A stretch of DNA of 64,000 nt, taken from assembly GCA_017303575.1 (NCBI GenBank), contig JAFLCL010000016.1, positions 1 through 64,000 on the forward strand, read 5' to 3'. This document shows, piece by piece, positions 34,628 through 52,804 of the stretch. Under the pieces are notes generated by a model. The model made no database searches, had not been told where the DNA came from, and was given only the letters and a program-made list of their open reading frames with translations. Numbering within the stretch: position 1 is the first letter of the stretch; each line of letters starts with the position of its first letter. The position numbers and the translations under genes are program-made. This stretch comes from Deltaproteobacteria bacterium (GTDB lineage: Bacteria > Myxococcota_A > Polyangia > Polyangiales > Sandaracinaceae).

Positions 34628-35320
34628 ATGCCGACGATGCACCGACGTCACTTCCTCGCGCTCACTTCGATCGCCCTGAGCGCCGCATCCACCTCGATCG
34701 TCGTCGCCGACTGCGCGCCCAACGAGGAGCGCGCGGGCTGGCTGACGACGAACGTGCACCCCGGCGGCGATGCGTTCGTGTGGCTCGGACAGCCGCGAGG
34801 CCTGCCGGTGCCGACGGATCTCGAGGTGACGATCAGCGGCGCGAGCTCACGCCTGCCGATCGTGTGGGTCGTCCCCGGCGTCGCGCGTCTTCGCGTTCCA
34901 GGAACAGCGAGCGGCGTGATGCGCATCGCGACACCACCCCGCGGACGAGGCCCCACGGGCGCGACGTTCGACGTGACGCTCGCGAGCGGCCCGCCTCCCG
35001 CGCGGATCAGCGCGCCGCCGAGTGGGCTCTCCCTGGCGCGCTCCCGCCATCCGATTCGTTGGGGCGAAGCCGAGGACGTCGAAGCGAGGTTCGCGGCGGC
35101 GCCTCCTTCGGTCCGTCACGTGATCATGCGGTGGTCACGCTTCGGCGCCGCGGCGTCGCTCGCGGCCGGCACCACCCGCGTGTCCGTCTACATGCAGGGC
35201 GGCTGCGGATCATCACCGGTGGACGCCGCGCCCCCCGCACGGGGAGAGCGCGTGGAGCTCGCGTTCCTCGACGACGAAGGCAACGTCTCTTCGTTCACGA
35301 GCGCGGTGATGCCTGCATGA
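34628..35320 (+). CDS. Secreted protein, paralogue B of a local pair
   Basis: This 230-residue protein is homologous by eye to the product of 33523-34209. It has a twin-Arg-like 'HRRHFLALTS' signal region and the shared 'FVWLGQPRGLP', 'LAAGTTRVSV' and 'LDDEGNVSS' blocks. It may be a periplasmic binding or structural protein. The stop TGA overlaps the ATG of the macro-domain gene (ATGA), so the two are coupled even though one product is exported and the other cytoplasmic. Confidence 0.7.
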   Translation: MPTMHRRHFLALTSIALSAASTSIVVADCAPNEERAGWLTTNVHPGGDAFVWLGQPRGLPVPTDLEVTISGASSRLPIVWVVPGVARLRVPGTASGVMRIATPPRGRGPTGATFDVTLASGPPPARISAPPSGLSLARSRHPIRWGEAEDVEARFAAAPPSVRHVIMRWSRFGAAASLAAGTTRVSVYMQGGCGSSPVDAAPPARGERVELAFLDDEGNVSSFTSAVMPA

Positions 35321-35778
35321 GCAGCGCACCGACTGCGATCGAGATCACGCGTGGTGACTTGTTCGCCGTCGACGTGGAGGCGATCGTCAACCCCGTCAAC
35401 ACGCGTGGCGTGATGGGCAAGGGGCTCGCGCTCGCCTTCAAGAAGAAGTTCCCCGACGCGTTTCGTGCCTACGCGAAGGCCTGTGAGCGCGGCGAGGTCG
35501 TCGTCGGTCGGATGCACGTGGTCGAGCGTGAGAGCAAGCCCCGCTACGTCATTCACTTTCCGACCAAGGACGACTGGCGCGCGCCTTCCCGGATCGAGTA
35601 CGTGCGTGACGGGCTCGTCGATCTCGTGAGGGAGATGCGTGAACGTGAGATCCGATCGATCGCGATCCCCGCGCTCGGGTGTGGGCTCGGCGGGCTCGAC
35701 TGGGACGACGTGCGGCCGCTGATCGTCGCGGCGCTCGAAGCAGTCGAGGCACGGGTCGTGGTGTTCGAGCCTTCGTGA
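35317..35778 (+). CDS. Stand-alone macro-domain protein (DarG/ALC1-like)
   Basis: This 153-residue macro domain opens with 'ITRGDLFAVDVEAIVNPVN', and its ligand-binding loops 'GVMGKGLALAFKK' and 'IPALGCGLGGLDWDDV' are intact. Such domains bind ADP-ribose and can remove it from proteins or, in DarG antitoxins, from DNA. The loop style is DarG-like. However, the C-terminal half of DarG is missing and no DarT gene is beside it. It could be an orphan antitoxin/anti-defence domain or a metabolite phosphatase. It stands at the left edge of the accessory region. Confidence 0.85.
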   Translation: MSSAPTAIEITRGDLFAVDVEAIVNPVNTRGVMGKGLALAFKKKFPDAFRAYAKACERGEVVVGRMHVVERESKPRYVIHFPTKDDWRAPSRIEYVRDGLVDLVREMREREIRSIAIPALGCGLGGLDWDDVRPLIVAALEAVEARVVVFEPS

Positions 35779-35934
35779 TCAGCACGAACCTAGCGCCAGG
35801 CTCATGGTGGCGACCGAGATGAACATTCTGCGTGGCCAGCCCTCGTCGGCCAGGACGACGAGGTCGCACGAGAAGTCGTTCACGTCGGAAGGTTGGATCC
35901 TCCGCGTGACGTATCCCCCGCCCCCGCCGGTCAT
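35779..35934 (-). CDS. Possible 51-residue protein (or coding remnant)
   Basis: This tiny minus-strand frame, from ATG 35934 to TGA 35779-35781, directly abuts the macro-domain stop on the other strand. Nearly all codons end in G or C, as in real genes here. The translation is balanced ('MTGGGGGYVTRRIQPSDVN', then 'DLVVLADEGWP', ending in '...LGSC'), unlike the Arg/Ala-rich noise of other non-coding frames. No good ribosome-binding site is visible. The frame stays open upstream into the end of the HerA-like gene, so it may be the tail of a broken larger gene rather than a complete one. Confidence 0.35.
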   Translation of the reverse strand: MTGGGGGYVTRRIQPSDVNDFSCDLVVLADEGWPRRMFISVATMSLALGSC

Positions 35935-35980
35935 CGTCGCCGTTTCGCCGCACTCACCAGCCGGGGCGGGTTGCCACGGG

Positions 35981-37360
35981 TCACGGCGTCGCTTCCCGCA
36001 GCCGCGCGAGCTCGCGGCCGGTCATCGGGCCGCGGAGGTAGCTCATCGCCCAGCGTGGGTTGAGCAGCGTGAGCTGGTTGCCCTTCGCTTCGCGTACGAC
36101 GAACCACCTCGGGCCGAGCTTCTTGAGCACGCCCGCGAGCACGCTCTTCTTCTTGTCCTCGCCCAGGCCCTCGACGACGCGTGCGCGGTCCGCGTCCGTC
36201 TGCAGGCGTCCGAGCATCCACGTGCCAGCGTTGCTGAGCGCGCGGTAGTCGAGGTCCATCGGGTTCTGCGTCGCGATCACGCAGCCAACGCCGAACGCGC
36301 GCGCTTGCTTCATCAGCGCCACGATCGGCCGCTTCGTCGGTGGATTCGCGGGGTGCGGCGGCACGAAGCCGTACACCTCGTCGAACGCGACGAGCGCCTT
36401 GAGGCGCGAGCTCCCCGGCTGGCTCCGCACCCAGCTCAGCACCTCTTCGAGGACCACGCCGAGCACGAGCTGTTTCTCGGCGTCGTCGAGGTGCGCGACG
36501 CTCACGATCGTCGCGGGCGTTCTGCCATCCACCTTCTGCATCCAGGCTCCGACGTCGATCGACTGACCCCGACGCCACGACGCGAACGACGGTGACGCGA
36601 CCAGCGTGTTGAGGTCCGCCGCGAGCTCCGCGCGCAGCTTCGGCGACACGAACGCGTCGAGCTCGAGGTCACCGATCTGCACGATCGGTGGCTCGTTCAG
36701 ATCGGCCATCAGCTCACCGAGCGTCGAAGTGCCTCCCTTCGACAAGCGCCGCTCCGCGAGCACCGACAAGAGCGCATGCTCCCGACTGCGCCCCGGATCC
36801 GCGTCGCGTCCGGTGAGACGAAGCACGAGCGACACAGCGGCCGACAGCGCCGCGCGTGCGGCAGCGGGAGCCCCGTCCCAGCGCGTGCTCCGTTGTTCGA
36901 GCGCCGAGAGCAGGTGCAGCGGCTCACCCGCCTCCGAGCCCGGCGTGATCACGCGCACGTGCATGCCCTTCGCGTACGCCGCGAGCTTGGCTTCATCGAT
37001 GTTCCACGACGCGAGCCCCTTGCGCCGCGTCTCGACGGCGCTCGCCACCACGGGCGGATCGGCGATGCCATCGTCGTCGCCCGCATCGGCCTCGACCCAC
37101 GGCGCCATCGCGGAGGGATCGAAGGAGGGCAGGGCGAGCGCCAGATTGGCGAGGTCGCCTTTGACGTCGATGAGGAGACAGGGCACCTGCGCCGACAACA
37201 CCTCTTCGACGAGCACGGTGAGGAGGCCAGTCTTGCCACTGCCGGTCATGCCGACGATCACGCCGTGGGTGAGGAGATCGTGCGCGGGAATGCCATAGGC
37301 ACCCAGGTTCGTGCGGGAGTCGAGGGTGTAGCGAGCACCGAGGTTCAATGTGGGAGTCAT
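35981..37360 (-). CDS. HerA-like ATPase (DUF87-type)
   Basis: This 459-residue P-loop ATPase of the HerA/FtsK class has its Walker A at 'IVGMTGSGKTGLLT' (residues about 35-48). Walker B may be 'LLIDVKGD', and 'KALVAFDEVYGFVPP' is a second hydrophobic-acidic block with the catalytic Glu. 'GVGCVIATQNPMDLDY' is sensor-like. Such ATPases act as hexamers on DNA, often with a nuclease partner (NurA, SIR2 and others). No partner is adjacent here, and the protein is shorter than many relatives, so a C-terminal part may be lost. A GGTTCC array lies directly upstream. Confidence 0.85.
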   Translation of the reverse strand: MTPTLNLGARYTLDSRTNLGAYGIPAHDLLTHGVIVGMTGSGKTGLLTVLVEEVLSAQVPCLLIDVKGDLANLALALPSFDPSAMAPWVEADAGDDDGIADPPVVASAVETRRKGLASWNIDEAKLAAYAKGMHVRVITPGSEAGEPLHLLSALEQRSTRWDGAPAAARAALSAAVSLVLRLTGRDADPGRSREHALLSVLAERRLSKGGTSTLGELMADLNEPPIVQIGDLELDAFVSPKLRAELAADLNTLVASPSFASWRRGQSIDVGAWMQKVDGRTPATIVSVAHLDDAEKQLVLGVVLEEVLSWVRSQPGSSRLKALVAFDEVYGFVPPHPANPPTKRPIVALMKQARAFGVGCVIATQNPMDLDYRALSNAGTWMLGRLQTDADRARVVEGLGEDKKKSVLAGVLKKLGPRWFVVREAKGNQLTLLNPRWAMSYLRGPMTGRELARLREATP

Positions 37361-37414
37361 GGTGTGTCTCTTGGTGTGGGGAGAGGGGCAGTCGGGGGGG
37401 CGGGGTGGGAATGC

Positions 37415-37730
37415 GGGATCTGGTTCCGGTTCCGGTTCCGGGATCCGGTTCCGGTTCCGGTTCCGGGATCCGGTTCCGGTTCCGGGATCCGGTTCCGGGT
37501 TCCGGTTCCGGTTCCGGGATCCGGTTCCGGGATCCGGTTCCGGGATCCGGTTCCGGGATCCGGTTCCGGTTCCGGGATCCGGTTCCGGTTCCGGATCCGG
37601 TTCCGGTTCCGGGATCCGGTTCCGGTTCCGGGATCCGGTTCCGGTTCCGGTTCCGGGATCCGGATCCGGATCCGGTTCCGGGATTCGGTTCCGGGATCCG
37701 GTTCCGGTTCCGCTTCCGGCTCTTGGTTCA
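37415..37730 (+). repeat. GGTTCC/GGATCC array 1
   Basis: About 315 bases consist of GGTTCC hexamers interrupted by the 7-base GGGATCC, with GGTTCC always on the plus strand. Because the 7-mer shifts the frame each time, all six frames stay open, giving meaningless peptides rich in Gly-Ser, Arg-Phe, Pro-Val, Glu-Pro and Gly-Thr. The array fills the space between the start of the HerA-like gene (37360) and the 3' end of the four-helix gene (37728). No gene or promoter was recognised in this interval. Confidence 0.95.
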
Positions 37731-38090
37731 GGCGCGCATTCGCCGCCAAGTCATGGCCGCGACCCGATCGAGCGCTGCGTCGATGTCGGTCGCGTCGGCC
37801 TCCGTGAGGTAGCCCCACGCCGCCGCGACCTGAATGCCTGCGCGCACTTCTCGCGCGCTGCCGAGAGCCGTGTGGAGTCTGGCGCGCCGATTGCCGCGGT
37901 CGCTTCCCTCCGCCTCCGCCAGATTCAACGCGACGCTGCTGGCAGCGCGTCGAATCTGGCGGGTCAGGTCTCGGTCGTGGCCCTCGATGACGCGGACGAT
38001 GGGTCTGAGTCGAGCAACGACCTGGAGCATCAGCGTGAGCGCCGAATTTTGGCGTTCGATGGTCACGTCAACTTCGTCGACCAGACTCAC
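37728..38090 (-). CDS. Four-helix-bundle protein (S23/23S-IVS family)
   Basis: This 120-residue protein starts at a GTG at 38090 that overlaps the TGA of the upstream gene (GTGA). The pattern 'DLTRQIRRAASSVALNLAEA' followed by 'ARLHTALGSAREVRAGIQVA' is the signature of the four-helix-bundle family that includes proteins encoded in 23S rRNA intervening sequences and the Avd proteins of diversity-generating retroelements. These pentameric bundles bind nucleic acids. No reverse transcriptase is nearby, so an Avd role is unlikely. The stop lies at the edge of GGTTCC array 1. Confidence 0.82.
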   Translation of the reverse strand: MSLVDEVDVTIERQNSALTLMLQVVARLRPIVRVIEGHDRDLTRQIRRAASSVALNLAEAEGSDRGNRRARLHTALGSAREVRAGIQVAAAWGYLTEADATDIDAALDRVAAMTWRRMRA

Positions 38091-39082
38091 GTGTTCGGAA
38101 ACGCGGGACCCCCGTTGATGGGAAATGCCGGACCACCATTGACCGGCACGGGTCCACCGGGCGTGACGAACGCGTCGTCGTCGCCACCGAGGTCCTCGTC
38201 CTCGCTCTCCTTGCCCTTGCGACTGCGACGGCCCGAGTAGAGCGACGGGACGAAGCGCTGCGCGTCGCCCTCGAAGTGACGGATGAAGAGCACCATGCGG
38301 CGCAGCTCCTCGTACTCACGCACGAGCAGGCTGAGCGCGCGCAGCCGCGTCTCGAGCGCCGACGTACGACCGCTGCTGCCCTGCGGCCCTGCGGCGAGCG
38401 CCTTGCCGAACCGATCGGCGATCTCCTCCGCCGCGTCGAGCACGTCCGGCGTGATGGGCGTGTGCGCAGCGATGGCGCGCCAGTTCTCGCGAAGGAGAGA
38501 CGCCAGGCCGATCACGGCGTCGAGCGCACCCTGGTAGCTGCGCGGGTCGCGGTGGCTCGCGACGGAGGCGCGCGAGAGGTGCCCGCGGATCGCGAGGGAC
38601 TCGGCGTCGACGAACAGCCGCTCGTGCATCGCGACGATCTCGCGGTGCATGGGCGCGAGCTGGACGCCCTCCTCCTGGCGCTCGTGGTCGTTCCAGGCCT
38701 GACGCGCCGCCTTCGCGGTGGTGTCGAGGCCATCCAGGATCTGCGCCGCGAAGGGGCCGAACTGGGCGACGAGCTCACCACGGAGCTCCCCCGCGGTGTG
38801 CACCGCAGCGCGCGCGACGGTGGTGGCGAAGGGGACGTCGAGGCGGATGCGACGGTTGATCCTCTCCTCGGGCATCGCCGCGAGGCGCTCCCGACGCGCC
38901 TCGAGCGCGGCCTGGTAGCTGCTGGTGTCGTTCTGGTTGTCGTTGAGGTTCGGCACGTTGTTCTCCTTGTTCTCCTTGCTGTTCTGGCTCTGGGTTTCGT
39001 TGAGGTTCGGCATGTTCGCTTCCTTGTGTTCCTTGCTGACGTTGAGGGTTTCGATCGACCGGGAACCAACTGAGGTGGGCAT
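38087..39082 (-). CDS. Helical protein with repeats at both ends, coupled to four-helix gene
   Basis: This 331-residue protein starts at ATG 39082 after a perfect AAAGGAGG. The N-terminal 45 residues are polar with a near-duplicated 'MPNLNETQSQN'/'VPNLNDNQND' unit. The long middle is helical ('AAQILDGLDTTAKAARQAWN', 'LLVREYEELRRMVLFIRHF'). The end has an acidic stretch, then a degenerate Gly-Gly-Pro repeat ('VNGGPAFPINGGPAF'). It has no cysteine, signal peptide or known motif. The stop overlaps the start of the four-helix gene, so the products are probably made in a fixed ratio and may work together. Function is unknown. Confidence 0.75.
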   Translation of the reverse strand: MPTSVGSRSIETLNVSKEHKEANMPNLNETQSQNSKENKENNVPNLNDNQNDTSSYQAALEARRERLAAMPEERINRRIRLDVPFATTVARAAVHTAGELRGELVAQFGPFAAQILDGLDTTAKAARQAWNDHERQEEGVQLAPMHREIVAMHERLFVDAESLAIRGHLSRASVASHRDPRSYQGALDAVIGLASLLRENWRAIAAHTPITPDVLDAAEEIADRFGKALAAGPQGSSGRTSALETRLRALSLLVREYEELRRMVLFIRHFEGDAQRFVPSLYSGRRSRKGKESEDEDLGGDDDAFVTPGGPVPVNGGPAFPINGGPAFPNT

Positions 39083-39181
39083 GAGCGCCCTCCTTTCCTG
39101 CGGTGCACTTCGCGCCGCTGGTGCAGTCATCAGCCCAGCCCCGATCCGGTTTCGTCCCCTCGCGAACAATTTCACAACGAG

Positions 39182-39205
39182 CCGGGAACACTGGCGTTTT
39201 CCCGG
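39182..39205. promoter_or_regulatory. CCGGGAA/TTCCCGG palindrome upstream of the helical-protein gene
   Basis: A perfect 7-bp inverted repeat with a 10-base spacer lies about 100 bases upstream of the ATG at 39082 in an unusually AT-containing stretch (AATTTCACAACG nearby). It could be an operator or a hairpin in the leader of the unknown two-gene unit. Confidence 0.4.
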
Positions 39206-39268
39206 ACACGCACGCACCCCGACGCCCTTACGCACGCCACGGATCGGGCTCCGAACCTCCCCCGATCG

Positions 39269-39520
39269 CTGTCGTCAGCGTCCGATCAGCGTCCGAACCT
39301 CGCCGATCGCTGTCGTCAGCGTCCGTTGAGCTTCCGAAGCTCCGCCGACGCTGTCGTCAGCGTGATCGCGAGGTTCCGAAGCTCCGACGGCGCTGTCGTC
39401 AGCGTGATCGGGAGGTTCCGAAGCTCCGAAGGCGCTGTCGTCAGCGTGATCGCGAGGTTCCGAAGCTCCGACGGGGCTGTCGTCAGCGGGGTGGGGAGGA
39501 TCGGAGGCTGGAACGGCGGT
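39269..39520 (+). repeat. 42-bp tandem repeat upstream of hsdM
   Basis: CTGTCGTCAGCG recurs at 39269, 39310, 39351, 39393, 39435 and 39477, so the period is 41, 41, 42, 42, 42 bases. From 39340 the whole unit is repeated, including GATCGCGAGGTTCCGAAGCTCCGA, with few changes. The two 41-base steps break any reading frame, so it is probably not a protein repeat, and there are no spacers, so it is not CRISPR. The 650-base interval 39083-39732 otherwise holds no recognisable gene. The array ends about 210 bases before hsdM and may hold regulator sites. Confidence 0.9.
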
Positions 39521-39732
39521 CGCGACAGCGATCGCGGAAGTTCCGATGCTGAAACTGCGGTCGAAAGACCCCGGGTGAGAGGTTGCGAAGCAGAACGCGT
39601 CACACGCGCGAGGGCGAATCAGCTCGAGTCGCCAGCGTCGACGTGCGCGGGCTTCGCCGAGACCACACGCGCACGCTCGGCCGCAAGGCTTGTAGGGGAT
39701 GTGGGTCTCCCGCTACGGTCGTCCGCCATTGC

Positions 39733-42195
39733 ATGCCGATCAAGAAGTCCGAGCTCTACACGTCCCTCTGGAAATCCTGCGACGAACTGCGCGGCGGCAT
39801 GGATGCCTCGCAGTACAAGGATTACGTCCTGGTCCTCTTGTTCGTGAAGTACGTCTCGGACAAGGCCGCCAGCCAGAAGAACTACCTGCTCGACGTCCCC
39901 GAGGGGGGCAGCTTCGCCGACATGGTCGCGCTCAAGGGCGACAAAGAGATCGGCGACAAGCTGAACAAGATCATCGCCAAGCTCGCCGACAAGAATGAGC
40001 TCAAGGGCGTGATCGACGTCGCCGACTGGAACGACGCCGACAAGCTGGGCAAGGGCAAGGACATGGTGGACCGGCTGTCGAACCTGGTCGCCATCTTCGA
40101 CAACCCGGCCCTCGACTTCCGGGGCAACCGCGCCGAGGGCGACGACCTGCTCGGCGACGCCTACGAGTACCTGATGCGCCACTTCGCCACCGAGAGTGGC
40201 AAGAGCAAGGGCCAGTTCTACACGCCGGCCGAGGTCTCGCGGATCATGGCCAAGGTCATCGGCGTTGGCAGCGCCAAGAGCGCGAGCCAGACCATCCACG
40301 ATCCCACCTGCGGCTCGGGCTCGCTCCTCCTCAAGGCGCACGACGAGGCCAAGGGCGCCACTGGCCTCGACCTCGCGCTCTACGGCCAGGAGATGGACAA
40401 TGCCACCAAGGCGCTGGCCCGCATGAATCTCATCCTGCACGACTGCCCCACCGGCGAGATCTGGCAGGACAACACGCTCTCCGCGCCGCACTTCAAGGAC
40501 GCCAAGAGCGGGGCGCTCAAGACATTCGACTTCGTCGTCGCCAACCCGCCGTTCTCCACCAAGGCGTGGACCAACGGCTTCGACCCCGCCAACGACCAGT
40601 ACGGCCGCTTCGCCTTCGGCGTCCCGCCTCAGAAGAACGGTGACTACGCCTTCCTGCTCCACATCCTCTCTTGCCTCAAGAGCACTGGCAAAGGTGCGGT
40701 GATTCTCCCCCACGGTGTGCTCTTCCGTGGTGGTGCCGAGGCCACCATCCGTCGCGAGGTCGTCAAGCGCGGCTACATCAAGGGCATCATCGGCCTGCCG
40801 GCGAACCTCTTCTACGGCACCGGCATCCCCGCCTGCATCCTGGTGCTCGACAAGGAAGGCGCCGCCGCCCGCAAGGGCATCTTCATGATCGACGCCTCCA
40901 AGGGCTTCATCAAGGATGGCAACAAGAACCGGCTGCGGGCGCAGGATATCCACAAGATCGTCGATGCGTTCACGCGCCTGCTCGAGCTCCCGCGCTACTC
41001 GCGCATGGTGCCGCTGGGGGAAATCAGCGACCCGAAGAACGACTTCAACCTGAACCTGCCGCGCTACATCGACTCAAGCGAACCCGAGGACATCCAGGAC
41101 ATCGACGGCCACCTGCGCGGCGGCATCCCCGACCGCGACCTCGACGCGCTGGAGCGGTACTGGAAGGTGTTCCCCGGCGTGCGCGAGGCGTTGTTCAAGA
41201 AGGCCGGACGCCCGGGCTACAGCGAGCTCAAGGTCGCCGCCACCGACATCAAGGCCACCATCTTCGGCCACGCCGAGTTCACCGCCTGGAGCACGCAGAC
41301 CAAGAAGCTGTTCGCCAAGTGGCGAGCCGAGGTCGCGCCCCGCCTGGCGGGCATCAAGAAGGGCGACAAGCCCAAGGTGCTCATCGAGTCGCTCGCCGAG
41401 GAGCTGCTGGCCACGTTCCAGACGGCGAAGCTGCTCGACGCTTACGACATCTACCAGCACCTGATGGACTACTGGGCCGACGCCATGCAGGACGACGTCT
41501 ACCTCATCGCCAGCGACGGCTGGCGCGAGGCCGCCAAGCCGAGACAGATGATCGAGGACAAGGACAAGAAGTCCAAGGACAAGCCCGACTTCATCCTCGG
41601 CAAGCAGAAGTTCAAGGTCGAGCTGATTCCACCCGCGCTGCTCATCGCTCGCCACTTCGCCGCCGAGCAGGCCGCCATCGAGAGGCTCGAGTCGGAAGCG
41701 GCGGCCGTCGCCCAGGAGATGGAGGAGTTGGCCGAGGCGCACGGTGGCGAAGACGGCCTCTTCGCAGAGGCCAAGAACGACAAGGACAAGCTCACCAAGG
41801 CCTCGGTGTCAGCGCGGCTCAAGGACATCAAGAACGACCGCGACGCCGCTTCCGAGCGCAAGGTATTGGGGGACTACCTGGCCCTCGTCGAGAAGGAGTC
41901 GGAGGTCAGCGCGAAGGTCAAGACCGCGCAGGAAGAGCTCACCGCGAAGGTCGCCGCCAAGTACGGGAAGCTGACCGAGGACGACATCAAGGCCCTGGTT
42001 GTCGAGGACAAGTGGCTGGCCACGCTCGAGGCGGCCGTGCAGGGGGAACTCGACCGAGTGTCGCAGACGCTGACTGGCCGCGTGCGTGAGCTTGCCGATC
42101 GCTACGCCACCCCGCTGCCGAAGCTGACCACTGAGCTGTCCCTCCTCGCCGCTAGAGTCGATGAGCATCTCAGAAGTATGGGGGCAGCGTGGTAG
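39733..42195 (+). CDS. hsdM: Type I restriction-modification methyltransferase (HsdM)
   Basis: This 820-residue N6-adenine methyltransferase subunit has an N-terminal HsdM_N helical domain (about 1-130). The SAM-binding 'DPTCGSGSLLLKAH' follows near residue 190, then the catalytic 'VVANPPFS' near residue 269. It is longer than the classic 500-residue HsdM: residues about 440-820 form a charged, coiled-coil-rich extension ('EQAAIERLESEAAAVAQEM'), typical of the large-HsdM class. It methylates host DNA together with HsdS and is needed for HsdR cleavage. The end overlaps hsdS by seven bases. Confidence 0.95.
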   Translation: MPIKKSELYTSLWKSCDELRGGMDASQYKDYVLVLLFVKYVSDKAASQKNYLLDVPEGGSFADMVALKGDKEIGDKLNKIIAKLADKNELKGVIDVADWNDADKLGKGKDMVDRLSNLVAIFDNPALDFRGNRAEGDDLLGDAYEYLMRHFATESGKSKGQFYTPAEVSRIMAKVIGVGSAKSASQTIHDPTCGSGSLLLKAHDEAKGATGLDLALYGQEMDNATKALARMNLILHDCPTGEIWQDNTLSAPHFKDAKSGALKTFDFVVANPPFSTKAWTNGFDPANDQYGRFAFGVPPQKNGDYAFLLHILSCLKSTGKGAVILPHGVLFRGGAEATIRREVVKRGYIKGIIGLPANLFYGTGIPACILVLDKEGAAARKGIFMIDASKGFIKDGNKNRLRAQDIHKIVDAFTRLLELPRYSRMVPLGEISDPKNDFNLNLPRYIDSSEPEDIQDIDGHLRGGIPDRDLDALERYWKVFPGVREALFKKAGRPGYSELKVAATDIKATIFGHAEFTAWSTQTKKLFAKWRAEVAPRLAGIKKGDKPKVLIESLAEELLATFQTAKLLDAYDIYQHLMDYWADAMQDDVYLIASDGWREAAKPRQMIEDKDKKSKDKPDFILGKQKFKVELIPPALLIARHFAAEQAAIERLESEAAAVAQEMEELAEAHGGEDGLFAEAKNDKDKLTKASVSARLKDIKNDRDAASERKVLGDYLALVEKESEVSAKVKTAQEELTAKVAAKYGKLTEDDIKALVVEDKWLATLEAAVQGELDRVSQTLTGRVRELADRYATPLPKLTTELSLLAARVDEHLRSMGAAW

Positions 42196-43442
42196 CCACA
42201 GCCGCGGCACTACACGAGTCGTGGGCATCCCCTAAAGGCTGGAAGCCAGTTTGCTTGGGGCAGATCTCGAGCCTCATCACGAGCGGGTCACGCGGCTGGG
42301 CAGCGCACTACGCTGACGTGGGCGCTCTGTTTGTGCGAAGCCAGAACGTGCGCGACGGGCGGCTAGATTTCAGCGACCGGCAATGCGTCGTCCCGCCAGC
42401 CGGGTCTGAAGGCACTCGGACACGTCTCGCTCCTGGCGACGTGTTGATTACGATCACCGGCAATAGCGTCGGCAATGTCGCCTGGGTGGACCAAGATTAT
42501 GGCGACGCCTACATAAGCCAGCACGTTGGACTCGTAAGGCTGACCGACCCGACGCTTGCGCCCTTTGTTTGCCGGTACCTCGCGCCAGGGGCACCAGGAA
42601 ATCCGCAAATTGCTGCGAGTCAGTCCGGACAGAGCAAGCCGGGTTTGAACTTGGGGAACCTTGCGGAGTTCCTGGTCAACTTCCCGCCTCCAGTCGAAGC
42701 CAAGGCCATCGCAACAACGCTGAGCGATGTGGATGCGCTGCTCGGTGCGCTGGACCGACTCATCGCCAAGAAGCGCGACCTCAAGCAAGCCGCCATGCAG
42801 CAGCTCCTCACCGGCCAGACCCGCCTGCCGGGGTTCAGTGGCAAGTGGGAGGAGCGGCGTGTTTGCGACATGGGCGAGGTGCTGGCAGGCAAGGCCCTCG
42901 ACGTGCATGGAGCCGGACGTCACCGGCCGTACCTGCGAACCAAGAACGTCCTCGACGGGCGCATCGACATCGACGATGTCCTGGAGATGCCGATGACCGA
43001 TGCGGAGTTCGAGCGGTTCCGCGTCAAGCACGGCGACGTACTCCTCAATGAGGGTCAGTCGGTGGAGCTGGTCGGACGGTGCTCTCTCTACCGCGACGAA
43101 CTCCCGGTCCCGTGCGCGATGCAGAACCAGCTACTCCGCTTTCGCGCCAAGCCGACGACCGCGTCGTCGTTCGCTGAGCAGGTATTTCGATGCTGTCAGC
43201 ACGACGGCACGTTCGCTTCGATCGCGACCCAGACAACCTCGGTAGCGCACCTCGGCAGTGTCCGATTTGCCAACCTTCGACTGCGTTGGCCCCTTGAACT
43301 CAAGGAGCAGGAAGCTGTTGGAGGCGTCCTTGCCGACATGGACGCCGAACTCCTTGCCCTCGAACAACGCCGCGACAAGACGCACCTGCTCAAGCAGGGG
43401 ATGATGCAGGAGCTGCTCACCGGAAGGACGCGCCTCGTATGA
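42189..43442 (+). CDS. hsdS: Type I restriction-modification specificity subunit (HsdS)
   Basis: This 417-residue protein starts at a GTG at 42189 inside the end of hsdM. There are two target-recognition domains: about 15-180 and 220-385. Each is followed by a conserved helix-linker, 'KKRDLKQAAMQQLLTGQTRL' and 'HLLKQGMMQELLTGRTRLV'. The pair sets the bipartite target sequence, which cannot be predicted by eye. The first domain (about 42240-42720) uses many A/T-ending codons, unlike hsdM and hsdR, as expected if recognition domains are swapped between strains. The stop overlaps the hsdR start (ATGA). Confidence 0.93.
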   Translation: MVATAAALHESWASPKGWKPVCLGQISSLITSGSRGWAAHYADVGALFVRSQNVRDGRLDFSDRQCVVPPAGSEGTRTRLAPGDVLITITGNSVGNVAWVDQDYGDAYISQHVGLVRLTDPTLAPFVCRYLAPGAPGNPQIAASQSGQSKPGLNLGNLAEFLVNFPPPVEAKAIATTLSDVDALLGALDRLIAKKRDLKQAAMQQLLTGQTRLPGFSGKWEERRVCDMGEVLAGKALDVHGAGRHRPYLRTKNVLDGRIDIDDVLEMPMTDAEFERFRVKHGDVLLNEGQSVELVGRCSLYRDELPVPCAMQNQLLRFRAKPTTASSFAEQVFRCCQHDGTFASIATQTTSVAHLGSVRFANLRLRWPLELKEQEAVGGVLADMDAELLALEQRRDKTHLLKQGMMQELLTGRTRLV

Positions 43443-46400
43443 GCACCATCGGCGAAGCGGAGAAGCGGACCCAGCGGCGCGTCGCCCGGCTGTTCGTCGA
43501 TGATCTCGGCTACGAGCACCTCGGCAACCTGAGCGAAGGCGACAACCGTAACATCATCGAGGGCCAGCTCGAGCACTTCCTGTGGGCCTATCAGGGCTTC
43601 GCCGAGCGCGAGGACGGCGACACCGTCATGCGCCGCGCCATCGCCGAGGTCGTCAAGGTCGCGGGCAATACCAGCCTCAGCCTCTACGACCGCAACCGCG
43701 CCGTCTACGAGCTCCTGCGCTACGGCGTGAAGGTCAAGGTCGACGTCGGGGCGCAAACCGAGACCGTCTGGCTGATCGACTGGAAGACGCCGGAGAAGAA
43801 CCGCTTCGCCATCGCCGAGGAGGTCACGGTCAAGCCGGCCGACCCGAAGGCCCACGGCAAGCGCCCCGACATCGTCCTGTACGTCAACGGCATCGCGCTC
43901 GGGGTCCTCGAGCTCAAGCGTTCGACCGTGTCGGTGGCCGAGGGCATCCGCCAGAACCTCGACAACCAGAAGAAGGAGTTCATCCAGCCCTTCTTCTCGA
44001 CCATGCAGTACGTCATGGCCGGCAACGACACCGAAGGTCTGCGCTACGGCACCATCCAGACCCCCGAGAAGTACTACCTCACCTGGAAGGAAGACGGCCC
44101 CGGCGACAACCCGCTCGACAACGGCCTCCGCCAGCTCTGCGGCACGGCCCGGTTCCTCGAGCTCATCCACGACTTCATCGTCTTCGACGCCGGCATCAAG
44201 AAGCTCTGCCGCCACAACCAGTACTTCGGCGTTCGCGCTGCGCAGGAGCACGTCCGCCGCCGAGAGGGCGGCATCCTGTGGCACACGCAGGGCAGCGGCA
44301 AGAGCCTCACCATGGTGTGGCTGGCCAAGTGGATCCGCGAGAACGTGAAGGACTCCCGCGTCCTCATCATCACCGATCGCACCGAGCTCGACGAGCAGAT
44401 CGAAAAGGTCTTCAAGGGTGTCGCTGAGGACATCCACCGCACCAAGTCGGGCGCCGACCTCATCGCCGCGCTGAACGCGACCAAGCCGTGGCTCCTCTGC
44501 TCGCTCATCCACAAGTTCGGCGGCAAGGAGGATGGTGAGCAGGTCGGCGACATCAAGGGCTTCGTCGAGGAGCTCAAGAAGTCGCTGCCCAAGGACTTCC
44601 GTCCCAAGGGGGATCTCTTCGTCTTCGTGGACGAGTGCCACCGCACTCAGTCCGGCGACCTGCACGAGGCCATGAAGGCCATCATGCCGGGCGCGGTCTT
44701 CATCGGCTTCACCGGCACGCCGCTGCTCAAGGCCGACAAGAAGAAGAGCATCGAGATCTTCGGCCGCTACATCCACACCTACAAGTTCGACGAGGCCGTG
44801 AAGGACGGCGTGGTGCTCGACCTCCGTTACGAGGCTCGCGACATCGACCAGAGCATCACCTCGCAGACGAAGACCGATCAGTGGTTCGAGGCGAAGACCA
44901 AGGGCCTCACGCCGCTGGCGAAGGCCCAGCTCAAGGCGCGCTGGGGCACGATGCAGAAAGTGCTCTCCAGCCAGTCTCGCCTGCAGAAGATCGCGGCCGA
45001 TCTCCTCCTCGACATGGAGACCCGCGACCGCCTGAAGAGCGGGCGAGGCAACGCGATGCTGGTGGCGGGGAGTATCTACGAGGCGTGCAAGTTCTACGAG
45101 CTCCTCGCCAAGACCCTTCTCGGCGGCAAGTGCGCGATCGTCACGTCGTACACGCCGCGGGCGGCGGACATCAAGGGCCAGGAGAGCGGCGAGGGCGCCA
45201 CCGACGCGCTGGAGAAGTACGGCACCTACCGGCAGATGCTGGCCGACTGGTTCAACGAGCCACCCGAGCAAGCGGTGACCAAGGTCGAAGCCTTCGAGAA
45301 GGCGGTGAAGAAGAAGTTCATCGACGAACCCGGGCAGATGAAGCTCTTGATCGTCGTCGACAAGCTGCTCACCGGGTTCGATGCGCCGCCGGCCACGTAC
45401 CTCTACATCGACAAGCAGATGCGGGATCACGGCCTCTTCCAGGCGATCTGCCGCGTCAACCGTCTCGACGGGGACGACAAGGAGTTCGGCTACATCGTCG
45501 ACTACAAGGACCTCTTCAAGAGCCTGGAGGGAGCCGTCGAGGACTACACGTCCGGGGCGCTCGATGGCTACGACAAGGAGGATGTCGCGGGCCTTCTCAA
45601 GGACCGGCTCAAGAAGGCCCGGGAGCAGCTCGAAGACGCGCTCGAGGCGGTACGTGCCCTCTGTGAGCCCGTCGCGCCGCCAAGGGATGACCAAGCGTTC
45701 TACGCGTACTTCTCGTCTGCCGAACACGGGAACGGTGCGCAGCTCAAGGCCAACGAGCCCCAGCGCCTCGCTCTCTACAAGCTCACGTCGTCCCTCGTGC
45801 GGGCGTACGCGAATCTCGCGAGCGAGATGACGGAGGCCGGGTACACGGCCGCGGAGGCCGAGCAGATCAAGAAGGACGTCACCTTCTACGAGAACCTTCG
45901 TGCCCAGGTGAAGCTGCACAGCGGTGACGCGATCGATCTGAAGCAGTACGAGCCGGCGATGCGGCACCTCATCGACACGTACATCCGTGCCGAGGAGAGC
46001 GAGAAGGTCTCCGAGTTCGATGACCTCTCGTTGGTCCAGCTCATCGTCGAGCGCGGTGCTGCAGCTGTGAAGGCGTTGCCCGAGGCGATTCGCAAGAAGG
46101 AGACGGCGACGGCGGAGACCATCGAGAACAACGTCCGCAAGCTCATCATCGACGAGTCGCCCATCAACCCGAAGTACTACGAGAAGATGTCGGAGCTCCT
46201 CGACTCGTTGATCGAGCAGCGACGACAAGCGGCGATCACTTATCAGGAGTACCTCGCGAAGATCGTGGAACTGACGAGGAAGGCAAAGAGCGGTCCGAAC
46301 GCGGGCGCCTACCCGCCGTCGCTCGACAGCACCGCCCGGCGGGCGCTGTACGACAACCTCGATCGTGACGAGGCGCTGGCGCTCAAGGTCGACCAAGCCG

Positions 46401-46543
46401 TGCGGGCGAGCCTGCAGGACAGCTGGCGCGGGAACGCGCTCAAGACCAAGCGCGTGCGCCAGGCGATCGCCGCGCTCCTCGACGGGGACGACGCCCGCAC
46501 CGATCGAACGCTCGAGCTCGTGAAGAAGCAAAATGATTACTGA
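43439..46543 (+). CDS. hsdR: Type I restriction endonuclease/translocase subunit (HsdR)
   Basis: This is a 1034-residue motor and nuclease. The N-terminal PD-(D/E)xK site is intact: Asp144 in 'RPDIVLYVNG' and Glu158-x-Lys160 in 'VLELKRS'. The SF2 helicase motifs follow: Walker A 'TQGSGKSLTMVW' near residue 283, DEAD-type 'FVDECHRTQSG' near 400 and 'GFTGTPLL' near 421. The C-terminal helical region binds the methylase core. It translocates DNA and cuts away from unmethylated targets. All key residues are present, so the system looks functional. Its end overlaps the metallopeptidase gene by 11 bases. Confidence 0.95.
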   Translation: MSTIGEAEKRTQRRVARLFVDDLGYEHLGNLSEGDNRNIIEGQLEHFLWAYQGFAEREDGDTVMRRAIAEVVKVAGNTSLSLYDRNRAVYELLRYGVKVKVDVGAQTETVWLIDWKTPEKNRFAIAEEVTVKPADPKAHGKRPDIVLYVNGIALGVLELKRSTVSVAEGIRQNLDNQKKEFIQPFFSTMQYVMAGNDTEGLRYGTIQTPEKYYLTWKEDGPGDNPLDNGLRQLCGTARFLELIHDFIVFDAGIKKLCRHNQYFGVRAAQEHVRRREGGILWHTQGSGKSLTMVWLAKWIRENVKDSRVLIITDRTELDEQIEKVFKGVAEDIHRTKSGADLIAALNATKPWLLCSLIHKFGGKEDGEQVGDIKGFVEELKKSLPKDFRPKGDLFVFVDECHRTQSGDLHEAMKAIMPGAVFIGFTGTPLLKADKKKSIEIFGRYIHTYKFDEAVKDGVVLDLRYEARDIDQSITSQTKTDQWFEAKTKGLTPLAKAQLKARWGTMQKVLSSQSRLQKIAADLLLDMETRDRLKSGRGNAMLVAGSIYEACKFYELLAKTLLGGKCAIVTSYTPRAADIKGQESGEGATDALEKYGTYRQMLADWFNEPPEQAVTKVEAFEKAVKKKFIDEPGQMKLLIVVDKLLTGFDAPPATYLYIDKQMRDHGLFQAICRVNRLDGDDKEFGYIVDYKDLFKSLEGAVEDYTSGALDGYDKEDVAGLLKDRLKKAREQLEDALEAVRALCEPVAPPRDDQAFYAYFSSAEHGNGAQLKANEPQRLALYKLTSSLVRAYANLASEMTEAGYTAAEAEQIKKDVTFYENLRAQVKLHSGDAIDLKQYEPAMRHLIDTYIRAEESEKVSEFDDLSLVQLIVERGAAAVKALPEAIRKKETATAETIENNVRKLIIDESPINPKYYEKMSELLDSLIEQRRQAAITYQEYLAKIVELTRKAKSGPNAGAYPPSLDSTARRALYDNLDRDEALALKVDQAVRASLQDSWRGNALKTKRVRQAIAALLDGDDARTDRTLELVKKQNDY

Positions 46544-51165: not shown

Positions 51166-52618
<1,453 letters not shown>

Positions 52619-52623
52619 GGGAC

Positions 52624-52804
52624 GGGTCCGCATCCGGGTTTCGGATCCGGTTCCGGGATCCGGTTCCGGCATCCGGTTCCGGTTCCGGTTCCGGGATCCG
52701 GTTCCGGTTCCGGTTCCGGTTCCGGGATCCGGTTCCGGTTCCGGGATCCGGTTCCGGTTCCGGTTCCGGTTCCGGTTCCGGGATCCGGTTCCGGTTCCGG
52801 TTCC
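52624..52804 (+). repeat. GGTTCC/GGATCC array 3
   Basis: About 180 bases, the shortest array, between two plus-strand barrel genes. GGTTCC is on the plus strand as in arrays 1 and 2. The first units are degenerate (GGGTTTCGGATCC, GGCATCC) and the last are clean, which hints at growth from one side. Confidence 0.95.

What the first reader, a model, noticed from the sequence alone, without database searches (positions are those of the whole stretch)
37728..39082. Coupled pair: unknown 331-residue helical protein and a four-helix-bundle protein
The two genes overlap by four bases, the first has a perfect AAAGGAGG, and an operator-like palindrome lies upstream. The four-helix family binds nucleic acid. 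The first protein has repeat-like ends (PNLN and GGP units) and no known domain. The pair sits between two tandem-repeat arrays next to a restriction operon.
Basis: partly seen in the sequence, partly recalled or inferred. Interest (0 to 1): 0.55.

Follow-up and report, generated by a model that had tools for sequence, protein, structure and literature searches.

The report
Phased DNA array, helical protein, HerA-like motor

Summary
The coordinates, 4-base overlap, AAAGGAGG and flanking arrays are real. The 331-aa protein (here "F1") matches no curated family, has 13 near-full-length paralogues in this genome and is patchy across its order and phylum. Its recurrent partner is a short HerA/FtsK-like ATPase directly downstream: 35 ATPase copies follow F1, and 11 follow a second, apparently unrelated helical family (F2). 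The four-helix gene sits between F1 and ATPase only here; a DUF2188-like gene holds that slot at three F2 loci.

The main surprise is in the DNA. The array at 39250-39550 is one example of a shared element: tandem arrays of 42-bp pitch (four helix turns) next to F1 genes, at 38 of 63 F1 genes against 0 of 298 control genes. Of 20 further F1 loci fetched afterwards, 11 had it and one had a 21-bp array. Pitch is constant but sequence is locus-specific; some units carry two dyads about 21 bp apart. F1 proteins end in a disordered tail with a [P/A]F motif: 27 of 29 ATPase-linked copies, 17 of 30 orphans.

Best reading (inferred): F1 binds its own phased array and, by its tail, recruits a DNA-moving ATPase, working like plasmid partition with different parts. 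No binding was tested.

The parts
39250..39550 (-). Phased array, 42-nt unit, 5.7 copies; site CGCTGACGACAGCG (read toward F1) at 41, 41, 42, 42 nt spacing, with a second, weaker dyad (GGAGCTTCGGAACCTCG) half a unit away
   Evidence: TRF; repeats; exact sites; dyads and distance 20.5
38087..39082 (-). F1: 331-aa protein predicted all-helical; low-confidence, probably disordered N-terminus (about 1-50) and C-terminal tail (285-331) ending GGPAFPNT
39089..39096 (-). Shine-Dalgarno AAAGGAGG of F1
   Evidence: sequence
37728..38090 (-). Four-helix-bundle gene (PF05635/TIGR02436), overlaps F1 by 4 bases; occupies the slot between F1 and the ATPase; probable passenger
35981..37360 (-). Short HerA/FtsK-like ATPase (459 aa), the recurrent downstream partner of F1
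37416..37719 (.). GGTTCC/GGATCC hexamer array between the four-helix gene and the ATPase; pattern found only on this contig; not taken as part of the conserved unit
39182..39205 (.).
39733..46543 (+). Divergent type I restriction-modification operon (methyltransferase 39733-42195, putative specificity gene 42189-43442, restriction 43439-46543); neighbour, not part of the unit
   Evidence: for the two enzymes; specificity gene inferred from position only

Best explanation
The locus is a three-part DNA-handling unit: a phased array of sites, the helical protein F1, and a short HerA/FtsK-like ATPase. F1 (inferred) binds the array as a line of molecules on one face of the DNA, because units repeat every 42 bp (4 turns), in some arrays with a second dyad 21 bp away (2 turns). 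The array mostly lies upstream of F1, so binding would also autoregulate the operon. The C-terminal tail with its [P/A]F motif (inferred) docks the ATPase, which would then move or position the DNA carrying the array. It works like a centromere-plus-motor partition system, but with a different motor and a binding protein of no known family. SHOWN: the gene association, the ATPase family, the array, its pitch, its specificity for F1 neighbourhoods, its locus-specific sequence, and the tail motif with its correlation with ATPase linkage. INFERRED: DNA binding by F1, autoregulation, tail-ATPase docking, translocation, and any segregation role. The four-helix gene is most likely a passenger or optional accessory.
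For: ATPase association: counting matches of 500 bits or more, 35 distinct ATPase copies have F1 directly upstream on the same strand and 11 have F2; 2 short copies have neither and 2 are at contig edges; of 4 distinct long-form copies 3 have neither and 1 is at an edge (with one locus fetched twice removed). In the own genome all 13 intact short copies have F1 (5) or F2 (8, one across 3.1 kb) before them. Array: 38 of 63 F1 genes with 700 bp upstream have a 40-44-nt array adjacent (34 upstream, 4 downstream) against 0 of 298 control genes; other 5-nt period bins from 25 to 69 hold 0-2. Periods: 42 in 28 of 41 arrays, 43 in 8, 41 in 3, 40 and 44 in 1 each. Lag scan: 54.5% of 66 F1 upstream regions pass at lags 41-43 against 0.5% of 396 random stretches, top lags 42 and 84. 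F2: 8 of 11 have a 20-22-nt array (score 60 or more) against 5 of 298 controls. Further test on 20 F1 loci fetched later: 11 with a 41-43-nt array, one with a 21-nt array, one with a 43-nt array whose F1 was seen only, 7 none. Dyads: 97 centres against 22.4 in shuffles (inflated by the repetition itself); per unit, best-dyad score 6.2 of 8 against 5.4 in shuffled units, and the two best dyads at least 19 nt apart in 29% against 11%. The window's 14-mer occurs 13 times in 9.4 Mb: 5 here, 5 at a decayed F1 locus, 3 single. Tail [P/A]F in the last 12 residues: 27 of 29 ATPase-linked F1 against 17 of 30 orphans, Fisher p=0.002.
Against: No binding or motor activity was tested. Many F1 matches are orphans without a linked ATPase (33 including fragments), and none of the 20 later loci shows one, so the ATPase is not obligatory. 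25 of 63 F1 genes show no 40-44-nt array by this test, and 7 of 20 later loci show none. Site similarity does not track protein similarity overall (Spearman 0.04, 763 pairs); of the 6 pairs above 70% identity, three share clearly (0.83-0.90) and three less or not (0.61, 0.55, 0.40). Dyads are weak or absent in many units and are not clearly enriched in F2 arrays (7 centres against 3.5). By the stricter lag test only 2 of 11 F2 regions pass at 20-22 nt. F1's core is near neutral in charge (30 K+R, 31 D+E) and no DNA-binding fold was recognised. F1 and the ATPase were not found in the plasmid collection, where partition systems are usual.
Confidence: 0.5

Rival explanations
1. F1 is only a self-regulating transcription factor: the array is its multi-site operator and the downstream genes (ATPase, four-helix) are varying regulated cargo.
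For: Arrays lie mostly upstream of F1 (34 of 38); orphan F1 genes keep arrays without an ATPase (20 of 29); the slot before the ATPase varies.
Against: Four arrays lie downstream of F1 and so do two of the later loci (L220, L222). The same ATPase recurs after two different partner families, and the tail motif follows ATPase linkage, which pure autoregulation does not predict. Several copies at constant pitch exceed a usual operator (inference).
Confidence: 0.25
2. A defence system: a HerA-type ATPase with a new effector or sensor, sitting in defence islands beside restriction systems.
For: Divergent type I restriction operons at the window and at L023 in the same genome; the ATPase scores against PADLOC HerA and mad8 models (40-55 bits). 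Neighbours of ATPase-linked F1 touch more PADLOC models in all (225 against 91 for orphan neighbours), though one specificity protein alone accounts for 64 of the 225.
Against: No defence family recurs: the most frequent reach 2 of 98 proteins against 3 of 100 (nearest two called genes per side of 37 and 30 loci, window not included). No nuclease domain was found in F1.
Confidence: 0.1
3. The array acts as RNA: a transcribed repeat array processed or bound by F1, loosely CRISPR-like.
For: Some units contain dyads that could form hairpins; arrays lie near the presumed leader.
Against: Pitch is fixed near 42 and 21 nt while sequences differ wholly, as helical phasing on DNA predicts and RNA does not; no Rfam match in window 35000-41000.
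Confidence: 0.06
4. One reading: F1 and the four-helix protein act together as a nucleic-acid-binding pair.
For: 4-base translational overlap here; two other F1 loci have a four-helix match within about 1.3 kb.
Against: Only the window has it in the operon; four-helix genes are common without F1; no profile similarity between them; the two reverse-transcriptase matches of the genome lie on other contigs, so an Avd-type role is unlikely.
Confidence: 0.05

Closest known systems
F plasmid sopABC (type Ia partition; ParB-F on sopC)
   Same: Tandem array of about 43 bp pitch, each unit with a short inverted repeat bound by a dimeric protein; an NTPase encoded in the same operon (passages of PMC9178275: twelve 43-bp repeats, 16-bp inverted repeat)
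   Different: ATPase is HerA/FtsK-like rather than ParA; F1 has no match to a ParB family; not found in the plasmid collection; many copies per genome, each with its own site; F1 often without ATPase; dyads weak in many units
HerA-NurA and anti-phage HerA systems
   Same: Same ATPase superfamily (PF05872/PF01935 matches over cut-off)
   Different: The Walker A motif (GMTGSGKT) is at residues 37-44, leaving no room for an N-terminal domain; NF042943 26.5 bits against a cut-off of 800; helical F1 or F2 partner, no recognised nuclease
Long-form (about 820 aa) relatives of the same ATPase in many phyla
   Same: 38-47% identical ATPase domain in L119-L186
   Different: Carry a C-terminal domain instead of a separate F1 or F2 gene; that domain is not detectably related to F1 or F2; 1 of 72 loci of this group has a 20-22- or 40-44-nt array upstream, and that one is weak (upstream sequence is short in some)
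PF05635/TIGR02436 four-helix bundle (23S rRNA IVP; Avd-like, recalled)
   Same: The 120-aa protein is a member
   Different: No rRNA match nearby and no reverse transcriptase on this contig

Membership tests
PF05635/TIGR02436 four-helix bundle (the 120-aa protein) | Score above the curated cut-off | tested here: met
   54 bits (cut-off 33.8) and 53.4 (cut-off 24)
Avd of diversity-generating retroelements | Adjacent reverse transcriptase | tested here: not met
   The two PF00078 matches of the genome are on contigs C268 and C63, not C68
HerA/FtsK-like ATPase superfamily (the 459-aa protein) | HerA-type P-loop domain over the Pfam cut-off | tested here: met
   PF05872 39.5 bits (cut-off 22) and PF01935 30.3 (cut-off 23.2); TGSGKT invariant in 18 of 18
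HerA-NurA / anti-phage HerA | Equivalog-level HerA | tested here: not met
   NF042943 26.5 bits against 800; NF040819 not listed for this protein at E<=0.001
HerA-NurA / anti-phage HerA | Nuclease partner in the operon | tested here: inconclusive
   F1 matches no family and the four-helix protein only PF05635/TIGR02436-type models; an unrecognised nuclease fold in F1 is not excluded
Type I (ParABS/sop) partition | ParA-type Walker ATPase | tested here: not met
   The ATPase is HerA/FtsK-like
Type I (ParABS/sop) partition | ParB-type centromere-binding protein | tested here: inconclusive
   F1: no Pfam match at E<=1, no solved-structure relative by sequence, fold comparison undecided
Type I (ParABS/sop) partition | Array of dyad sites beside the operon | tested here: met
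   dyads weak in many units; pitch compared with sopC from PMC9178275 passages
Type I (ParABS/sop) partition | Stabilises the DNA that carries it | not testable with these tools
   needs a plasmid-retention assay
F1 family (defined here) | Profile match plus phased array | tested here: met
   264 bits to the best paralogue; array 39250-39550

The most novel reading that the evidence does not exclude
A new class of chromosomal DNA-positioning or segregation machine: paralogous F1 proteins each claim a private array whose geometry (21 or 42 bp pitch, same helix face) is conserved while its sequence drifts, giving several mutually exclusive addresses in one genome, and a HerA/FtsK-type translocase replaces ParA, ParM or TubZ. 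F2 would be an independently recruited adaptor for the same motor.
Probability: 0.3. Interest if true: 0.9.

Novelty: new variant of a known kind. Interest (0 to 1): 0.72.

Why it matters
If right, it adds a HerA/FtsK-type motor and a new all-helical adaptor to the known ways bacteria address a motor to an array of DNA sites, in many copies per genome. The constant pitch with locus-specific sequence gives a ready experiment on how protein-site specificity diverges among paralogues. It also explains a class of intergenic tandem arrays in myxobacterial genomes that would otherwise be passed over as repeats.

Tried and rejected
Direct search for F1 alone in named genomes by pattern found no relative, and the F1 alignment was too divergent for a pattern scan; profile search of whole genomes and a scan with the ATPase replaced these. 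The idea that F1 is the split-off C-terminal domain of the long ATPase was tested by profile-profile alignment and found no support (probability 0.2%); F1 against F2 likewise (0.4%), and F1 against the four-helix family likewise (0.2%). Fold comparison of the F1 model (mean pLDDT 73, pTM 0.47, six sequences) gave no Foldseek match better than E 0.07. VIA-align gave only middling Z (best 8.2, to a BAR domain). Two chains of unknown function, one titled as S23 ribosomal protein family, appear at Z about 7 for residues 136-235, which for helical bundles may mean nothing. Defence-island enrichment was tested and not clearly seen (no recurrent family, but 225 against 91 models touched). The hexamer array was considered as part of the unit and set aside. 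F1 was not found in the plasmid or phage collections, nor the short ATPase in plasmids at E<=1e-20; six viral contigs hold 33-41% identical ATPases, not followed up. No known RNA family in window 35000-41000. A literature search for the methylation-associated defence terms gave 0 papers, as did one for the four-helix family.

Selection and rows dropped: loci were fetched because they matched F1 or the ATPase, so the pairing counts are not a random sample, and some loci are orthologues in related genomes. One search counts only ATPase matches of 500 bits or more; decayed, partial or lower-scoring copies (L079, L101, L197, L198, L199, L200, L205, L218) are outside it. L086 and L196 appear there as two frame-split pieces each and are counted once here. 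L113 and L204 are the same locus fetched twice and are counted once; L188 and L190 share the F2 gene but have different ATPases; no F1 duplicates were found. L195 has only F2 fragments and L189 has a 3.1-kb gap. One search drops 6 F1 near contig ends and matches under 100 bits. In one search, L086 and L088 were moved to 'linked' because the gene caller missed their ATPase (one search shows it). Of the 20 later loci, six are from the same order, two from the same class and twelve from elsewhere in the phylum; no control genes were run on them.

Full report
WHAT IS THERE. On the minus strand the order is: array 39250-39550, F1 39082-38087 (331 aa), four-helix gene 38090-37728, hexamer array 37719-37416, ATPase 37360-35981. 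Divergent from F1 runs a type I restriction-modification operon from 39733.

F1 IS A FAMILY. F1 has no Pfam match at E<=1, yet the own genome holds many paralogues: one search lists 19 matches at E<=1 (itself and fragments included), and 13 near-full-length paralogues were aligned with it (14 rows, A1). Profile search finds F1 in 21 of 56 genomes (own one included) and in 22 of 282 drawn from the phylum (own one included), so it is patchy. It was not found in the plasmid or phage collections. The model is all helical between residues about 48 and 277, with low-confidence ends; no convincing fold match.

THE RECURRENT PARTNER. Directly downstream of F1, on the same strand, lies a short (about 455 aa) HerA/FtsK-like ATPase: 35 distinct copies of 500 bits or more. 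Matches to PF05872 and PF01935 exceed the cut-offs, and the Walker A motif is invariant in 18 sequences. Other short copies have instead a second helical protein, F2 (about 255 aa), in the same place: 11 copies, one with only F2 fragments and one across 3.1 kb. In the own genome 5 intact short ATPases follow F1 and 8 follow F2. Two short copies elsewhere have neither (L109, L201). Long-form copies (about 820 aa) carry their own C-terminal domain: of four distinct ones of 500 bits or more, three have neither F1 nor F2 and one is at a contig edge. F1, F2 and the long-form C-terminal domain are not detectably related to one another in the comparisons made. So the short motor appears to work with interchangeable adaptors.

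THE FOUR-HELIX GENE. PF05635 genes occur in 28 of 56 genomes, up to 31 in one; 7 of those 28 have an F1 match and 21 do not. The own genome has three, one beside F1 and one about 13 kb from another F1. Within an F1-ATPase operon it was seen only here. Three F2 operons carry a DUF2188-like gene of 77-82 aa in the same slot (the family name is recalled from the sequence pattern and was not scanned). Two further F1 loci have a four-helix match within about 1.3 kb but arranged differently (L206, L080). Its coding score per codon is low in a crude model (11 over 112 codons against 138 over 331 for F1), which would fit recent arrival. I take it as passenger or optional accessory.

THE ARRAY. Tandem Repeats Finder on the loci showed arrays of 41-44 nt next to many F1 genes and of about 21 nt before many F2 genes. 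Tests: 38 of 63 F1 genes with 700 bp upstream have a 40-44-nt array within 900 bp upstream or 600 bp downstream (18 of 34 ATPase-linked, 20 of 29 orphans) against 0 of 298 other genes in the same loci; other 5-nt period bins from 25 to 69 hold 0 to 2. By a lag scan that does not use the repeat finder, 54.5% of 66 F1 upstream regions pass at lags 41-43 against 0.5% of 396 random stretches, and the mean profile peaks at 42, 84, 43 and 126; F2 regions (11) peak at 21, 42 and 63, though only 2 of 11 pass at 20-22. By the repeat finder 8 of 11 F2 genes have a 20-22-nt array of score 60 or more upstream against 5 of 298 controls; at score 100 it is 1 of 11 against 1 of 298. Twenty F1 loci fetched after the pattern was seen gave 11 with a 41-43-nt array, one with a 21-nt array of 14 copies, one with a 43-nt array whose F1 was seen only, and 7 without. 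Arrays rarely accompany the long-form ATPase: 1 of 72 loci, and that one weak. The period is 42 in 28 of 41 arrays, 43 in 8, 41 in 3, 40 in 1, 44 in 1; 40, 41, 43 and 44 are not multiples of three, which argues against coding repeats.

WHAT THE ARRAY LOOKS LIKE. Dyad centres are about four times as frequent as in letter-shuffled arrays (97 against 22.4), with spacings at 20-22 and 41-43; the repetition itself inflates the count and makes the 41-43 spacing expected. Per unit the effect is moderate: best-dyad score 6.2 of 8 against 5.4, and the two best dyads at least 19 nt apart in 29% of 41 units against 11% of shuffled ones. In the window the unit holds ACGCTGACGACAGCGT (7 of 8) and GGAGCTTCGGAACCTCG (6 of 8), 20.5 nt apart; L074 and L075 hold two stronger dyads (8 and 7 of 8) 20.5 nt apart. 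The exact 14-mer of the window occurs 13 times in 9.4 Mb: 5 here, 5 at C334 beside a decayed F1, 3 single. Unit sequence is shared only among some close F1 homologues (mean similarity 0.70 over 6 pairs above 70% protein identity, from 0.40 to 0.90) and falls near the shuffled level (0.44) below. Geometry is conserved and sequence is not. Two helix turns (21 bp) and four (42 bp) put sites on one face of the DNA; this reading of the pitch is my inference.

THE TAIL. F1 proteins mostly end in a proline- or acid-rich stretch with [P/A]F, F usually 2 to 5 residues from the end. It is in the last 12 residues in 27 of 29 ATPase-linked F1 and in 17 of 30 orphans (Fisher p=0.002). 9 of 11 F2 proteins have PF in their last 45 residues. 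I read this as a docking motif for the ATPase; that is inference. It recalls the SSB C-terminal tip (recalled, not tested).

MECHANISM. Most likely F1 coats its own array, represses its promoter, and hands the ATPase to that DNA. The nearest working analogue is F plasmid sopC, whose twelve 43-bp repeats each carry a 16-bp inverted repeat for ParB-F (passages of PMC9178275). The motor is not ParA-like by family search; relation of F1 to known centromere-binding proteins was not found but is not excluded. Orphan F1 genes keep their arrays, so F1 plus array looks like the core and the ATPase an add-on or shared in trans. The main rival is plain autoregulation. A defence role is less favoured: no defence family recurs among neighbours (2 of 98 against 3 of 100), although ATPase-linked neighbours touch more PADLOC models in all (225 against 91, 64 of them from one specificity protein).

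WHAT IS IN PRINT. Searches of the held open-access library with HerA, FtsK, myxobacteria and tandem repeat (14 of 14 listed), with HerA, DNA translocase and Sandaracinus (10 of 83 listed), with myxobacteria, intergenic tandem repeats, palindromic and DNA-binding (10 of 23 listed) and with HerA, centromere, iterons and partition (10 of 158 listed) showed no title or abstract start describing such a system; only the listings were seen. Subscription papers are not covered.

LIMITS. The loci are not a random sample, the genomes are mostly drafts, gene starts come from a crude caller, and no biochemical property was measured.

Noticed in passing
37416-37719, 51171-51527, 52633-52804: GGTTCC/GGATCC hexamer arrays: 23 matches to a 27-nt pattern in the whole genome, all on this contig and all on the + strand. 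Draft assembly may hide others.
   Followed up: partly
51400-51496 and 52607-52705: The only two tRNA calls of the window overlap the hexamer arrays and are probably artefacts.
   Followed up: no
L207 (1619-2202), L208 (1218-1842): Four-helix genes in tail-to-tail pairs about 20-100 nt apart; the match list shows many such pairs in several genomes (for example G012, G040, G053).
   Followed up: partly
L119-L186 (named contigs): A widespread ATPase of about 820 aa whose C-terminal domain has almost no Pfam match in the four members scanned, across many bacterial phyla and some archaea.
   Followed up: partly
L030, L034, L076, L079: Broken or partial F1 genes, some still next to a 42-nt array (L030, L076), which suggests turnover of copies.
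   Followed up: no
L188 and L190: Two contigs of the own genome carry identical F2 proteins before different ATPases: recent duplication or assembly duplication.
   Followed up: partly
L196:6836-7210: A 42-nt array of 8.9 copies lies at a contig end just upstream of a decayed ATPase with no F1 in view.
   Followed up: no
L240-L245: Six viral contigs (three of them 150-169 kb) encode 33-41% identical relatives of the ATPase.
   Followed up: no
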